64,000 nucleotides of DNA from Alistipes sp. GTDB taxonomy: Bacteria > Bacteroidota > Bacteroidia > Bacteroidales > Rikenellaceae. Positions 9,333 through 57,274 of this stretch are shown here, in pieces (position 1 is the first letter of the stretch; each line of letters begins with the position of its first letter). A program made the translations under genes and the position numbers. The stretch spans positions 1 to 64,000 of the forward strand of contig JAIDUZ010000069.1 of the NCBI GenBank assembly GCA_029059935.1, read 5' to 3'. Under the pieces are notes generated by a model that was not told where the DNA came from, made no database searches, and saw nothing but the letters and a program-made list of their open reading frames with translations.

Positions 9333-9714
9333 GCCCGCAATACCCCGCCGAGTGTTTGTTCGTGGCGAAAAATTTCCTACTTTTGTGGTGCTTGGGTTGC
9401 ACCCCTAAGCAGACATATCGGAAAGTGTTTTCGCTTTTTGTCCTTACGTGAAAATGTGGAAGTTTTCAAGTGCAAGAGGACGACGAACAGCACTCATTTC
9501 TTGTTTAGATGTTGGCAGGGATGCGTTCTGCACCCCTATATCCCATATCTATTCAAGTGTGGGGTATTGCATCGTTTATTCTTGTACAGGTCTTTCCACA
9601 ACCTTCACGTAGATAAACGAAATTCAGCTCCACACTTTCTTTTTGCACATAACCCGCCGCATAGGAGTTGTACGGTAATAGAATTTGAACTCGAAAACTC
9701 AAATTTATATTGCT
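9333..9714 (+). promoter_or_regulatory. promoter plus long structured leader of BspA-like locus A, repeated at 55025-55406 (minus)
   Basis: TTTG(9355-9358)-N19-TACTTTTG(9378-9385), then ~320 nt to the ATG at 9715. Hairpins at 9518-9535 and 9555-9637, the latter followed by TTCTTTTT; all conserved in locus B. Confidence 0.7.
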
Positions 9715-11731
9715 ATGAAAAAACTATTTCTTTTAACCGCACTGTTCGTCGCGGCAGTGTTCCCGTCGTGCAGCAAGCACGACGGCGTCGAAACGCCCGA
9801 CCCTCAGCCGCTCGCCATCGCATTCGCCGAGGGCAATTCGTTGCAGTTCGATGCCGGCGAGACCAAGACCGTCCACTACACCATTACGGGCGGCAGCGGC
9901 AACACCGTGGTAAAAGCCGAGATGCAAACTTCTGACGACGCCTATGCAGTGGAAACGACACCTGCTTCGGCAACCGAAGGGACGATTACGATTACAGCCA
10001 AAACGCCGGAGACCGAGAATAGTGTCGTCGTCACCGTGTCGGACGGCTCGCAGACCGTTACGGCCGAAATCGCCGTGTCGGCAAAGCCCATTCCCGAAGA
10101 ACTTGCCATTGCATTCGCCGAGGGCAACGAACTCTTCTTTGGCGTCGACGAGACCAAGACCGTCCACTACACCATCACGGGCGGCAGCGACAAAACCGTC
10201 GTGACGGCCGAGATGCAAACCCCCGACGATGCCTATACCGTAGAAACGACACCCGCTTCGGCAACGGAGGGAACAATTGCGATTACGGTCCAAAAGCCAA
10301 CCTATAATTGCGTAATCGTCACCGTATCGGACAGCGACCGGTCGATTACGGCATCGATAGACGTTACGGTATTTAAATGGCAAAACCGTTGCAGTAGAGA
10401 CTCCGGGCACGTTGTCGCAGCTGCTGGCGGACTATGATAAAACTACCATTACCGAACTGACCGTTATCGGCAATCTGAACGATAAGGATATTGCGACGCT
10501 GAAAAATCTTCCCAACCTTGCCGTTCTCGATATGGAGCATGTGAATTTGGAGGAGTTGCCGTGGATAGCATTCCAATACAAAACATCGTTGACCTCCGTC
10601 AAGCTGCCGCTGACACTGAAAACAATCGGGACCTACGCATTCTACCAGTGCACCGGTCTGACAAGCATCACGATTCCCGACAGCGTGACGTCGATCGAGG
10701 ACAGCGCATTCTGCGGTTGCAGCGGCCTGACAAGCATAACGATTCCCGACGGCGTGACGGAGATTGGGTTCTGCACATTCTACCTGTGCACCGGTCTGAC
10801 AAGCGTAACGATTGGTAACGGTGTGACGTCGATCGGGGAGGAAGCATTTTACAATTGCAACAAACTAACAAGCATAACGATTCCCGACGGTGTCACGTCA
10901 ATCGGGAACCACGCATTCATCGGTTGCAGCAGCCTGACAAGCATCACAATTCCCGACAGCGTGACGTCGATTGGGGAGGGGGCATTCTGCGGTTGCAGCC
11001 CGTCAAGCATAACGATTCCCGACAGCGTGACGTCAATCGAGGCGTACACATTCCGCTATTGCAGCAGTCTGACAAGCATTACGATTCCCGACGGTGTCAC
11101 GTCGATTGGGGACTTCGCATTCAGCGACTGCAGTGGCCTGACAAGCGTAACAATTGGCAACAGCGTGACGTCGATTGGGGAGGGGGCATTCTCCTATTGC
11201 AGCGATCTGACCAGCATAACGATTCCCGACAGCGTGACGTCAATCGAGGCGTACACATTCCGCTATTGCAGCAGTCTGAGGGCCTTTTACGGAAGATTCG
11301 CTTCATCGGACAATCGATATTTGATAATCGACGGTGAATTAGTTGCTTTTGCTTCGGCAGGCTTAACTTCCCATACGATTCCCGACAGCGTGACGTCAAT
11401 CGGGAACCACGCATTCTTCGGTTGCAGCGGCCTGACAAGCATCACGATTCCCGACAGCGTGACGTCAATCGGGAACTACGCATTCTCCGGTTGCAGCGGC
11501 CTGACAAGCATTACGATTCCCGACGGCGTGACGTCAATCGGGGGTGGCGCATTCTACAATTGCTACAAACTGACAAGCATCTATTGCAAGGCAATCGCCC
11601 CACCGAGTATCACAGCCGGTGTTTTTTATAGTTATAACGCAACGTTATATGTTCCGACAGGCAGCAAGGCGGCTTACGCTGCGGCTGCCGGATGGGAAAA
11701 TTTTAGAACAATCGAAGAAACCCAATTTTAA
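9715..11731 (+). pseudogene. BspA-like leucine-rich-repeat lipoprotein, locus A, split into two frames
   Basis: MKKLFLLTALFVAAVFPSCSK lipoprotein signal and two LAIAFAEGN...TVHYTITGGS domains. The frame ends at 10437; the +1 frame continues LNGKTVAVETPGTLSQLLADYDK then about 13 LRR units. Locus B is continuous across the same point. Confidence 0.85.
10620..11580 (+). repeat. tandem 69-bp (23-aa) LRR_5/BspA repeats
   Basis: Units of SITIPDSVTSIGxxAFxGCSGLT. Near-exact 67-bp copies at 11006-11072 and 11213-11279, spaced 207 bp (3 x 69). Confidence 0.9.
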
Positions 11732-53272: not shown

Positions 53273-55015
53273 TTATTCAAACTCCATTTCGTTGGTATTA
53301 GAAAAAGATTCCCAACCATCGGCTGCTCGATAGGCATCGGCACTGCCGATCGGAACATACAGCGGTATTGTTGGCCTGGGAACCCCATTAAACGCTGCGA
53401 AACCTATTGTCGGAGGCGTTTGAGCCTTGCAATAGATGCTTGCCAGGCCGCGGCAATTGTAGAATGCGTAGGACCCAATCGACGTCACACCGTTGCCAAT
53501 CGTTACGCTTGTCAGGCCGCGGCAATCCTCGAATGCGCGCTCTCCAATCGTCGTCACACTATTGGGAATCGTTATGCTTGTCAGACTGCTGCAATACTGG
53601 AATGCCCAGCTCCCAATTGTTGTTACGCCGTCGGGAATCGTTACGCTTGTCAAGCTGCTGCAATTGAAGAATGCGCTCATCCCAATTGACGTTACACTGT
53701 CGGGAATCGTTACGCTTGTCAAGCTGCTGCAATTGGAGAATGCGCCAAACCCAATCGACGTTACACTGTCGGGAATCGTTACACTTGTCAGGCGGCTGTA
53801 ATTGGAGAATGCGTAGGACCCAATCGACGTTACGCTATCGGGAATCACCAGCTCGTCGGTTATCAATTCACCATTCAAATACAAGTTCTGGGCATAAACC
53901 AGAGGATTGGAACTACCCCTATAGAATTCTATCGCACACCATTTTGCTATATCGGTAATATATACCCCTGTTAGGCTATTGCAATCGATGAATGCGTAGT
54001 TCTCAATCGACGTCACACTGTCAGGGATAGTTATGCTTGTCAGGTTGCTGCAACCCCTGAATGAGGAGTTACGGATAGTTTTCAGTGTCAGCGGTAGTTT
54101 GATGGATATCAACGATGTTTTTTCATAGAATAGTACAGGAAACGCCTTCAAATTCACATGTTCCATGTCGAGAACTGCGAGATTGGGGAGTTTTTCCAGA
54201 GTCGCAATATCCTTGTCGTTCAGATTGCCGATAACGGTCAAATCGGTAATTGTCGTTTTATCGTAGTCGGCCAGCAGTTTCGACAGGGTGCCCGCAGTTT
54301 TGACCTCGACTGTTTTACCGTCGAAAGATGCTTTAAGTTTAATTGTAACGTCTATTGCTGCCATAATGGTCTGCGAGCCGTTCGACACGGTAATAATTAC
54401 GCGATTATCGGTCGACGGTATTTTGACCGTGATTTTTATGGTTCCTTCCGTTGCCGAAGTCTGCGTTATATAGAACTCGTAGGCATTGTCGTTGTCGGGG
54501 TTCTGCATCTCGGCTTTTACTACGGTTTTATCACTGCCGCCCGTAATGGTATAGTGGACGGTCTTTGTCTCTCCGACGTTGAACTCCAACGAATTACCCT
54601 CGGCGAACGTAATGACGAGTTCTTCGGGAATGGGCTTTGCCGACACGGCGATTTCTGCCGTAACGGTCTGCGAGCCGTCCGACACGGTGACGATTATACG
54701 ATTCTCGTTCGACGGCTTTTTGGCCGTAATCGTAATCGTTCCCTCCGTTGCCGAAATCGGTGTCGTTTCTACGGTATAGGCATCGTCGGGGTTCTGCATC
54801 TCGACTTTCACCACGTTATTGGCACTGCCGCCCGTGATAGTGTAGTGGACGGTCTTGGTCTCGTCGACGTCGAACTGCAACGAATTGCCCTCGGCGAACA
54901 CAATCGCGAGTGGCTGAGGGTCGGGCAAATCGGGCGTCTCGACGCCGTCGTGCTTACTGCACGACGGGAACGCGGCCGCGATGAATAATGCGGCCAAAAG
55001 AAACAGTTTTTTCAT
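53273..55015 (-). CDS. BspA-like leucine-rich-repeat lipoprotein, locus B (intact)
   Basis: MKKLFLLAALFIAAAFPSCSKHDGVETP; two AEGNSLQFDV...VHYTITGGS domains; LRR units SVTIPDSVTSIGFGAFSNCSSLT. Confidence 0.9.
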   Translation of the reverse strand: MKKLFLLAALFIAAAFPSCSKHDGVETPDLPDPQPLAIVFAEGNSLQFDVDETKTVHYTITGGSANNVVKVEMQNPDDAYTVETTPISATEGTITITAKKPSNENRIIVTVSDGSQTVTAEIAVSAKPIPEELVITFAEGNSLEFNVGETKTVHYTITGGSDKTVVKAEMQNPDNDNAYEFYITQTSATEGTIKITVKIPSTDNRVIITVSNGSQTIMAAIDVTIKLKASFDGKTVEVKTAGTLSKLLADYDKTTITDLTVIGNLNDKDIATLEKLPNLAVLDMEHVNLKAFPVLFYEKTSLISIKLPLTLKTIRNSSFRGCSNLTSITIPDSVTSIENYAFIDCNSLTGVYITDIAKWCAIEFYRGSSNPLVYAQNLYLNGELITDELVIPDSVTSIGSYAFSNYSRLTSVTIPDSVTSIGFGAFSNCSSLTSVTIPDSVTSIGMSAFFNCSSLTSVTIPDGVTTIGSWAFQYCSSLTSITIPNSVTTIGERAFEDCRGLTSVTIGNGVTSIGSYAFYNCRGLASIYCKAQTPPTIGFAAFNGVPRPTIPLYVPIGSADAYRAADGWESFSNTNEMEFE

Positions 55016-55024
55016 AGCAATATA

Positions 55025-55406
55025 AATTTGAGTTTTCGAGTTCAAATTCTATTGCCGTATCAGCTCCGCTGCGGCGGGTTCGGGGTATGGGCAAAAAGAA
55101 AGTGTGGAGCCGATTTTCGTCTATCTAACTGAAGGTTGTGGCGAACCTTGAAACAAATAGACGATGCAATACCCCACACTTGGATAGAAATGGAGTACCT
55201 CGGTGCGTAGAGACGCACCTTGTCCATAGTCTATACAAGAAATGAGTGCCGTTCGTCGTCCTTGTTTCATAGAAAATTGCCACATTTTCAGTTAAGGACA
55301 GTGCGAAAACACTTTCAATATATGTCTGCTTCGGACAAAAGCCTCAGCACCGCAAAAATAGAAAATATTTCCCCGACGAACAAACACTCTGCGGGATATT
55401 GCAGGC
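55025..55406 (-). promoter_or_regulatory. promoter and structured leader of BspA-like locus B
   Basis: Minus strand TTTG-N20-TATTTTTG (TATTTTTG at 55353-55360); hairpins at 55202-55219 and 55100-55181; homologous to 9333-9714. Confidence 0.7.
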
Positions 55407-55606: not shown

Positions 55607-57274
55607 CTACTCGGATTCGGAAGATTCGGGAGATTCGGGAGATTCGGGAGATTCGGGAGATTCGGGAGATTCGGGAGATTCGGCAGCCGTGCCGGCAGTT
55701 TCCGGAACGGCGGCGGGAAGCACACAGACGAGATACCCGCCGACAACATGCGAATCGAGCCCGGCGACGAACCGCTGCATGGCCTCGTCGTGCCGCAGTT
55801 TCCGTTCGGACACCATCAGCACGCCGCCGGCGCCCTGTCCGGCCAGTGCTTCATCCGCGGAGATTTCAGTGATGGAGTGCCCCAGGTAAACATCCATGTT
55901 CTCGGGCCGCCGCACTTTCCAAACGTAATAACCGGCGAAATCGGACTGCTCCGCGGCAACTTCCTTGGCCGTGCGGCACAACTCGCCGTAGCCCAGCATG
56001 CTGTTGAAGCGAGGCAAGGCGAAACCGCCAACGAAAATCGCGCACAGCAGTCCGCCGGCCAAAACCTGGACCGAGCGATACATGTCCCGGCGCCGGAAAA
56101 GGAACCACAGCGTCGCAGCGCCTCCGGCCGAAAGCAGCGCCCCGGCCGCAAAGCACCACCCGTTACGCAGGAAAGCCGTCGCAGGCATCGAAGCCGCTAC
56201 AACGACCGCAGGCAACGCAAGCGTCCAGATGACGGCCGGCACCGCCAGTGCGGCCCGCATCCATCCGTTCACCCGCACCCGGGCCAACAGCGAGACCGCC
56301 GCATAGACAACGAACGGAAACGCCGGCGCCAGATAGACCGCCAGTTTGGAGCTGAACAGCGAGAGCATGACGAACGTGGTGAGCGCCGCCGAAAGAAAGA
56401 AACGTTCCGTTTCGTTCAGCCGCACGCGCTGCCGCCAGGCCGCCACGAAGACAACGGCCAGAAGCAGCGACCACGGAGCCAGCGAATACCACACCGACAT
56501 GCCGTAGAAATAGAACGGCGCCTTGTGGTGGAACGCATCGACGGCCCGGTCGAGCGTCTGATGGAAGAGGAGGTTGTCGAGATACTCCGTGCCGCCCTCG
56601 GCCCATACGGCCGAGAACCACAAAGCGCACCCCGCCAGCAGAATGCCCCATGTCCGCCAGCCCCAATAACGGCCTATCTGCCGCCACTGCCGCTGCACGA
56701 CGAGGAAAACGACGGTCGACAGCAACGGCACGAGCAGCCCCACGGGCCCTTTAGTGAAGAGGGCCATGAAAGCATAGAGCGGAAAGAGCATCGCGGCCCG
56801 GCGGCTGTCGCCCTCGCCGGTGTAAAGACGCCAAAAAGCATGGAGCGACAGCACGATGAACATGCACATGAGCATGTCCATGCGCAGGAAGACGGCGAGG
56901 CCCAGGAAAAGCCCGCAGGTCATCGTCATCCACGCTCCGGCCGCCCGCATCCGTTCGTCGAGCGCCGGACGCACCCAACGGTCCATCGTACGGAGGATGA
57001 CCAACGCCGGGAAGAACGAGAAGAGCGACAGGAACCACATGCAGTGCGCACCGAACAACAGCCTGCCCGCCATGACGATCCACAGATAGAGGGGCGGTTT
57101 GTCGGCATAGGCGGCACCGTGGGAGGTAAAGGCGAAAAAATGCCCCTCGCGGATGGCTTCATCGGCAATGCTGAGATACCGCAGTTCGTTGGAGGGCGTG
57201 AAATCGCGCAGCACCATCACGGGCAGCAGCGCCATGAAGAAAAGGCAGAAAAGCAGACGTAGCGACTTGTTCAT
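55607..57274 (-). CDS. ArnT-like GT39-type glycosyltransferase with Ser-Pro-Glu repeat tail
   Basis: DFTPSNELRYLSIADEAIREGHFFAFTSHGAAYADKPPLYLWIV, multiple TM helices; C-term ESPESPESPESPESPESPESSESE. Confidence 0.88.
   Translation of the reverse strand: MNKSLRLLFCLFFMALLPVMVLRDFTPSNELRYLSIADEAIREGHFFAFTSHGAAYADKPPLYLWIVMAGRLLFGAHCMWFLSLFSFFPALVILRTMDRWVRPALDERMRAAGAWMTMTCGLFLGLAVFLRMDMLMCMFIVLSLHAFWRLYTGEGDSRRAAMLFPLYAFMALFTKGPVGLLVPLLSTVVFLVVQRQWRQIGRYWGWRTWGILLAGCALWFSAVWAEGGTEYLDNLLFHQTLDRAVDAFHHKAPFYFYGMSVWYSLAPWSLLLAVVFVAAWRQRVRLNETERFFLSAALTTFVMLSLFSSKLAVYLAPAFPFVVYAAVSLLARVRVNGWMRAALAVPAVIWTLALPAVVVAASMPATAFLRNGWCFAAGALLSAGGAATLWFLFRRRDMYRSVQVLAGGLLCAIFVGGFALPRFNSMLGYGELCRTAKEVAAEQSDFAGYYVWKVRRPENMDVYLGHSITEISADEALAGQGAGGVLMVSERKLRHDEAMQRFVAGLDSHVVGGYLVCVLPAAVPETAGTAAESPESPESPESPESPESPESSESE
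55613..55684. repeat. 9-bp tandem repeat (gattcggga)n, in-frame
   Basis: About seven units of gattcggga visible directly; encodes SPE repeats on the minus strand. Confidence 0.95.

What the first reader, a model, noticed from the sequence alone, without database searches (positions are those of the whole stretch)
9392..9714. Conserved structured leader RNA with covarying stems and a terminator-like hairpin upstream of BspA-like lipoproteins
Both BspA-like loci carry a TTTG-N19/20-TAnnTTTG promoter and then ~320 nt of homologous untranslated leader. Three hairpins are preserved although the sequences have diverged. (i) GGGATGC..GCACCCC (locus A, 9518-9535) versus GGTGCGT-ctct-ACGCACC (B, 55202-55219): different sequence, pairing kept. 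(ii) Outer stem AAGTGTGG/CCACACTT (A 9555-9562/9630-9637; B 55174-55181/55100-55107). (iii) Inner stem TCGTTTAT/ATAAACGA in A (9572-9579/9613-9620) versus TCGTCTAT/ATAGACGA in B, a compensatory U-A to C-G change. The outer stem is followed directly by TTCTTTTT in both, like an intrinsic terminator, so the leader may be a cis-acting attenuator or riboregulator of a surface protein. The pairing is seen directly; the regulatory role is inference.
Basis: partly seen in the sequence, partly recalled or inferred. Interest (0 to 1): 0.78.

Follow-up and report, generated by a model that had tools for sequence, protein, structure and literature searches.

The report
Bacteroidota-wide switchable mRNA leader RNA
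The stretch in front of this surface-protein gene is one copy of a large folded RNA that sits at the start of many cell-surface gene messages across the phylum Bacteroidota, is absent from the Rfam catalogue, and in this genus also carries two segments that match the DNA just upstream of its own promoter.

Summary
Both window leaders belong to a multi-copy RNA family with no Rfam 15 match. Copies occur in 61 of 101 close relatives, up to 25 per genome. With a broader model they occur in 69 of 198 Bacteroidales and 46 of 396 Bacteroidota genomes.

Covariation supports a long rod: 53 pairs, 29 changed on both sides, 0 of 500 shuffles as good. A 3' hairpin just before the start codon pairs back into the rod.

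Of 200 downstream genes, 74% look secreted, lipoprotein or membrane, against 19% of window ORFs. Start codons cluster 50-59 nt behind the rod.

Unexpectedly, in many copies two RNA segments pair base for base with DNA just upstream of the RNA's own promoter. Deviations are mostly G.U, not A.C (112 v 7). This suggests RNA-promoter feedback; mechanism and partner are unknown.

The parts
9337..9346 (+). Copy A: upstream DNA block c' (GCAATACCCC), complementary to RNA block c (9561-9570)
   Evidence: Perfect 10-nt complement; base-level covariation across the family
9350..9363 (+). Copy A: upstream DNA block b' (GAGTGTTTGTTCGT), complementary to RNA block b (9483-9495, with one bulged T in A and B); contains the -33 box TTTG 9355-9358
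   Evidence: fixed 27-bp spacing from b' to the -7 box in 60 of 74 copies
9378..9385 (+). Copy A: -7 promoter element TACTTTTG (Bacteroidetes type TAnnTTTG)
   Evidence: conserved in near and remote copies
9390..9410 (+). Copy A: 5' hairpin at the presumed transcript start, followed by conserved GACATAT (9412-9418)
   Evidence: alignment; start site inferred from the -7 box, not measured
9421..9639 (+). Copy A: rod domain. Closing stem X.Y 9421-9428/9632-9639; arm 9444-9451/9604-9611; loop-loop pairing 9455-9461/9594-9600; arm 9470-9477/9580-9587; head hairpins 9500-9557
   Evidence: Covariance model R1 match 9420-9640; pair counts; MFE fold
9557..9564 (+).
   Evidence: covaries in paralogues (sequences)
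9572..9620 (+).
   Evidence: 98.7% of cells paired
9636..9644 (+). Copy A: U-rich tract TTTCTTTTT behind the alternative stem
   Evidence: composition compared across groups
9657..9675 (+). Copy A: 3' hairpin; its loop GGAGTTG (9664-9670) pairs with CAGCTCC (9625-9631) in the rod
   Evidence: 94.2% paired, 3 pairs changed on both sides (helix 7); own v swapped p = 2e-10 near, 2.7e-6 remote
9715..11731 (+). Copy A: BspA-type LRR lipoprotein gene behind the leader; reading frame interrupted near 10410-10437
   Evidence: Pfam LRR_5 2.5e-107 for 10412-11731
55393..55402 (-). Copy B: upstream DNA block c' (GCAATATCCC)
55376..55389 (-). Copy B: upstream DNA block b' with -33 box
55353..55360 (-). 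Copy B: -7 element TATTTTTG
55098..55316 (-). Copy B: rod domain
   Evidence: R1 match 55097-55317; MFE fold
55055..55078 (-). Copy B: 3' hairpin with loop GGAGCTG (55067-55061)
53273..55015 (-). Copy B: BspA-type LRR lipoprotein gene
   Evidence: Pfam LRR_5 1.3e-70

Best explanation
This is a cis-acting, two-state mRNA leader. SHOWN by comparison: an RNA of about 160-220 nt at the start of the transcript folds into a rod whose ends pair (X.Y), with covarying inner arms and a loop-loop contact. A hairpin just before the start codon pairs back into the rod next to Y. The 3' strand Y has a second possible partner (c), which gives a stem followed by a U-rich tract. INFERRED: during transcription the RNA chooses between (1) the rod plus 3' hairpin contact and (2) two separate hairpins, the second terminator-like. 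This choice sets how much of the downstream, mostly cell-surface, gene is made, by termination, by access to the start codon, or both. SHOWN in many copies, including A and B: segments b and c, which flank the head hairpin, are complementary to DNA immediately upstream of, and overlapping, the same promoter's -33 box. INFERRED: the RNA pairs with that promoter DNA as a feedback layer, in cis and perhaps in trans, probably with an unidentified protein or assisted by negative supercoiling.
For: Rod: 94.5% of cells paired, 29 of 53 pairs changed on both sides, 0 of 500 shuffles as high, slid controls 37-46%. Alternative set: 96.9% paired, 0 of 500. Rod is the minimum-energy fold of A and B, z -4.37; rod -77.5 v alternative -69.1 kcal/mol in A. 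3' hairpin contact: p = 2e-10, 1.8e-6, 2.7e-6 and 0.03 in four sets. ORF starts: 101 of 200 at 50-59 nt behind the rod. Products: 147 of 200 secreted/lipoprotein/membrane v 9 of 47 control ORFs. Promoter complement: Y1 table 38/2/0/52 and Y2 table 80/3/0/9, whose exceptions are G.U; mismatches 112 G.U-type v 7 A.C-type. Copies without the upstream block let the c segment vary. b' keeps 27 bp to the -7 box in 60 of 74 while the distance from box to RNA varies, which points to DNA geometry. Perfect matches with quite different letters in remote copies L181, L189, L206, L213, L222.
Against: No expression data. The U-tract is weak in many remote copies, so termination may be local. X.Y and c.Y are both nearly invariant inside the genus, so the pair counts there do not choose between them. 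No ligand, protein or trigger was identified. The promoter complement is absent from many copies (60 of 163 near copies by the rule; the 24 phylum-wide copies), so it cannot be the core function. Fisher values ignore common descent. Most loci come from metagenome-assembled genomes, although one isolate, Alistipes sp. An66, is included (L051).
Confidence: 0.55

Rival explanations
1. Plain transcription attenuator: the AAGUGUGG/CCACACUU hairpin plus U-tract ends transcription unless a signal favours the rod.
For: The stem covaries in paralogues (sequences); TTTCTTTTT is the commonest tail in this genus, and at least 6 of 8 U in 62-75% of near copies; X competes for the same 3' strand, including the first U residues.
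Against: Only 33% of phylum-wide copies have a U-rich tail; the stem encloses about 60 nt; in A it is 8.4 kcal/mol less stable than the rod; the 3' hairpin beyond the tract is conserved.
Confidence: 0.2
2. Translation switch: the 3' hairpin/rod pseudoknot next to the start codon controls ribosome access; termination plays no part.
For: 3' contact covaries across families; start codon at a narrow distance.
Against: The loop is not a conserved Shine-Dalgarno sequence (GGAGUUG, GGAACUG, GGGUUUG, GAUGCCG); some copies with good rods lack the hairpin (L040, L061, L066, L085).
Confidence: 0.25
3. The RNA is a guide for an RNA-guided DNA-binding system: b and c, separated by the head hairpin, direct an unknown protein to promoters carrying c'-b', in cis and in trans.
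For: Base-level covariation of RNA and target; target promoters without the RNA exist (L286, L297) or sit in front of an RNA that does not match (L288); partial cross-matching between copies of one genome.
Against: No TnpB/Cas12f-type protein (PF07282) found in the 85%-complete own genome; no partner gene seen next to the copies; G.U pairs are frequent; many copies have no target.
Confidence: 0.15
4. DNA-level element: a folded single strand or recombination site at which genes are exchanged behind a constant 5' segment.
For: Several locus pairs share the upstream flank and leader but carry different genes; in G005:C69 v G056:C27 both flanks are conserved around different genes.
Against: Promoter, 5' hairpin and start-codon spacing make sense for RNA; mismatches are G.U-type on the RNA strand; no recombinase nearby; break points vary (+205 to about +290, one before the promoter); some breaks may be assembly chimeras.
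Confidence: 0.07

Closest known systems
Riboswitches and other structured cis-regulatory leaders (general class)
   Same: Structured 5' leader, alternative pairings, pseudoknot near the start codon, many copies per genome
   Different: No Rfam match; no common pathway among the genes; no ligand known; large and rod-like
Terminator/antiterminator attenuators
   Same: 3' strand Y can pair with c (stem plus U-tract) or with X
   Different: U-tract not kept across the family; the terminator-like stem is the less stable fold in copy A; conserved 3' hairpin beyond it
Flavo-1 and other Rfam motifs of Bacteroidota (RF01705 etc.)
   Same: Conserved structured RNAs of the phylum, many copies
   Different: Sequence and structure do not match in cmscan
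RNA-guided promoter control (tracr-L/Cas9 autoregulation, TldR, dCas12f-sigma; from general knowledge)
   Same: An RNA segment complementary to promoter DNA
   Different: Here the complementary segments lie inside an mRNA leader, in two blocks around a hairpin; no protein partner known
Group II intron EBS/IBS and IS110 bridge RNA (from general knowledge)
   Same: Two RNA segments pair with DNA flanking the element and covary with it
   Different: Both blocks pair collinearly with one strand, upstream of a promoter; no reverse transcriptase or recombinase attached; start codon follows at fixed spacing

Membership tests
Any Rfam 15 family | Match above gathering score (or near it) | tested here: not met
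   Window, 18 remote loci and 18 phylum-wide loci: no match at the element above noise
Structured cis-regulatory leader | Covarying structure beyond chance | tested here: met
   0 of 500 shuffles reach any of five measures; slid controls far lower
Structured cis-regulatory leader | Sits in the 5' UTR at constant distance from a coding start | tested here: met
   Promoter upstream, ATG 50-59 nt behind in 101 of 200
Structured cis-regulatory leader | Changes gene expression | not testable with these tools
   Needs reporter assays
Intrinsic-terminator attenuator | Stem followed by U-tract, conserved across the family | tested here: inconclusive
   Good in genus, weak in many remote copies
Intrinsic-terminator attenuator | Mutually exclusive antiterminator pairing | tested here: met
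   X and c compete for Y
Riboswitch | Binds a specific ligand | not testable with these tools
   No ligand suggested by the diverse gene content
RNA-guided DNA-targeting system | RNA segment complementary to DNA target, with covariation | tested here: met
RNA-guided DNA-targeting system | Known RNA-guided effector encoded in the genome | tested here: not met
   PF07282 absent from own genome; other effector families not searched
Transposon end / mobile RNA | Adjacent transposase, recombinase or reverse transcriptase | tested here: inconclusive
   None recognised among the first downstream ORFs; flanks not annotated systematically

The most novel reading that the evidence does not exclude
A leader RNA family that carries a bipartite, re-programmable segment with which each transcript recognises the DNA of its own promoter (and sister promoters), coupling a bistable leader switch to RNA-directed promoter feedback.
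Probability: 0.3. Interest if true: 0.93.

Novelty: new variant of a known kind. Interest (0 to 1): 0.82.

Why it matters
A phylum-wide, multi-copy RNA family in front of mainly surface and secreted protein genes of gut and environmental Bacteroidota has no entry in Rfam 15. If it is a switch, it would be a common control layer for cell-surface genes in a dominant group of gut bacteria, testable with one reporter series. The covariation between an mRNA leader and promoter DNA is, as far as I know, without an established precedent and raises a testable question: can a leader RNA read its own promoter?

Tried and rejected
First by-eye reading treated the long-range pairings as pseudoknots; RNAalifold showed they nest as rungs of one rod. 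Considered a protein-binding-site mimic as the reason for RNA/promoter similarity: disfavoured, because the YAUYG positions of RNA block c covary with upstream DNA, whereas the facing part of the RNA forms an internal loop without compensating changes (sequences). Considered upstream read-through RNA as partner: disfavoured, because about half of the upstream ORFs run the other way, in A the upstream gene is divergent, and b' has fixed spacing to the promoter. Considered that the inverted similarity is a relic of duplication: relics would decay rather than covary. TnpB/Cas12f partner: not found in own genome. Viral contigs: none; plasmids: none. The one 'phage' record with a copy (MT838511) shows no phage gene among the ORFs examined (WYL regulator, secreted ORFs). 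Literature searches found no description of this motif in the held library; a human-microbiome survey of thousands of candidate RNAs (PMC8040213) was seen in a search but not compared motif by motif.

Full report
WHAT WAS CLAIMED AND WHAT IS THERE. The leaders align end to end, the promoters are as described, and all three pairings exist. The genes are BspA-type LRR lipoproteins (Pfam LRR_5).

EXTENT OF THE FAMILY. A blastn search of 100 relatives found matches in 57 of 101 genomes, many with seven or more. A scan of public genome contigs returned more than 116 matches, mostly in records named Alistipes, Tidjanibacter, Rikenella and Rikenellaceae, including one isolate, Alistipes sp. An66. A covariance model from 30 copies (R1) found 61 of 101 relatives, 25 copies in one genome, and remote copies in other families at E 1e-6 to 1e-15. 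A second model that includes remote copies (R2) found 69 of 198 Bacteroidales genomes in 56 of 151 genera, and 46 of 396 genomes across the phylum. The latter include three genomes outside the window's class. Filters were strict, so these are lower bounds. The own genome has seven copies. Rfam 15 has no matching family.

STRUCTURE. RNAalifold on 30 MAFFT-aligned copies gives one long rod. Pair counts on that alignment, which was not fitted to any structure, give 94.5% of cells paired, 29 of 53 pairs with changes on both sides, and no shuffle of 500 as high on any measure; slid controls fall to 37-46%. The most variable helices are the two inner arms (all 7 pairs of each covary) and the head hairpin. 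The loop-loop helix (UGUGGAA/UUCCACA in A) changes as a unit in remote copies (UCUGGUA/UACCAGA, CGCC/GGCG, GUAGG/CCUAC). Copies A and B fold into this rod as minimum-energy structure, z -4.37 each.

In A the rod is 8.4 kcal/mol more stable. Inside the genus both stems are almost invariant. Outside it, and among paralogues of one genome, c.Y covaries (GUGUGAGG/CCUCACAC, GUGUGGAG/CUCCACAC, GCGUGGG/CCCACGC; sequences). Both states therefore appear to be kept.

Behind the rod a hairpin presents a loop (GGAGUUG in A) complementary to a strand just 5' of Y (CAGCUCC). Own loops match own rods better than swapped ones in four separate sets: p = 2e-10, 1.8e-6, 2.7e-6, 0.03. Examples with quite different letters are CGGCAUC/GAUGCCG (L201), CAGUUCC/GGAACUG (L197) and UAAACCC/GGGUUUG (L327). 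The start codon follows at 50-59 nt from the rod in 101 of 200 cases, with a second group at 75-84.

GENES. 147 of 200 downstream ORFs have a signal peptide, lipobox or early membrane segment by a simple rule, against 9 of 47 long ORFs of the window. The rest are diverse. No common pathway is visible.

PROMOTER COMPLEMENTARITY. In many copies, A and B included, DNA just upstream of the promoter is complementary to two RNA segments, b and c, that flank the head hairpin. Ranked against upstream regions of other copies, a copy's own upstream region fits its RNA better (near set, b p = 9e-10, c p = 1e-9). At two variable positions the tables are 38/2/0/52 and 80/3/0/9, where the few exceptions are G.U pairs. 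Across 144 duplexes, 112 deviations are G.U-type and 7 A.C-type, which identifies the RNA strand as a partner. Remote copies show perfect matches with other letters (L181, L189, L206, L213, L222). In copies without the upstream block the c segment varies freely. Block b' contains the -33 box and keeps 27 bp to the -7 box in 60 of 74 copies, whereas the distance from box to RNA varies. That, and the fact that about half of the upstream ORFs point away, argues that the partner is DNA rather than upstream RNA. The same promoter module occurs twice without the RNA and once before a non-matching RNA, so action in trans is possible. Within single genomes the copies match their own promoters better on average than others, but not exclusively. 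These p-values ignore common descent; the pattern of exceptions is the stronger argument.

MECHANISM. I commit to a two-state cis-acting leader (0.55). Shown: the competing pairings, the 3' contact next to the start codon, and the promoter complement. Inferred: that the choice of fold sets expression, and that RNA-promoter pairing feeds back. Termination at the U-tract is plausible in this genus (TTTCTTTTT) but the tract is not kept across the phylum, so translation control is an equal contender.

LIMITS. No transcript data; mostly metagenome-assembled genomes; one database of RNA families; six literature searches in an open-access library without a description of this motif.

Noticed in passing
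window 10410-10437: The BspA-like gene behind leader A is interrupted by a frame change after about 240 codons (ORFs 9685-10437 and 10412-11731), whereas gene B is intact: pseudogene, phase variation or assembly error.
   Followed up: partly
L301 (G005:C69) v L302 (G056:C27); L298/L299; L300/L061; L303/L304; L306/L307: Orthologous loci keep the upstream flank and often the leader but carry different genes behind it; in one pair both flanks are conserved around different lipoprotein genes sharing the signal peptide. Looks like gene exchange at the leader.
   Followed up: partly
L286 (G004:C14:13668), L297 (G020:C128:19069), L288 (G034:C32:7626): The promoter with the c'-b' block occurs without the RNA in front of a phospholipase-D-like ORF and a lipoprotein ORF, and in front of a remote-type RNA that does not match it.
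   Followed up: partly
L240 (G005:C64:76211-76764): Two copies of the element lie in tandem about 350 bp apart, the first followed by only a short ORF.
   Followed up: no
L149 (MT838511.1 1859-2057): A GenBank 'Bacteriophage sp.' contig with a copy of the element carries a WYL regulator and secreted-type ORFs and no recognised phage gene among those examined; probably a chromosomal fragment.
   Followed up: partly
L312, L313 (other families of the class): Copies about 230 nt upstream of ORFs whose start resembles SusC/TonB-type receptors; other copies of the same group lack an adjacent start codon and may be separate RNAs or have longer leaders.
   Followed up: no
window 55630-55680: Tandem repeat CTCCCGAAT at the 3' end of the ORF 55607-57274 (-), upstream of copy B.
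   Followed up: no
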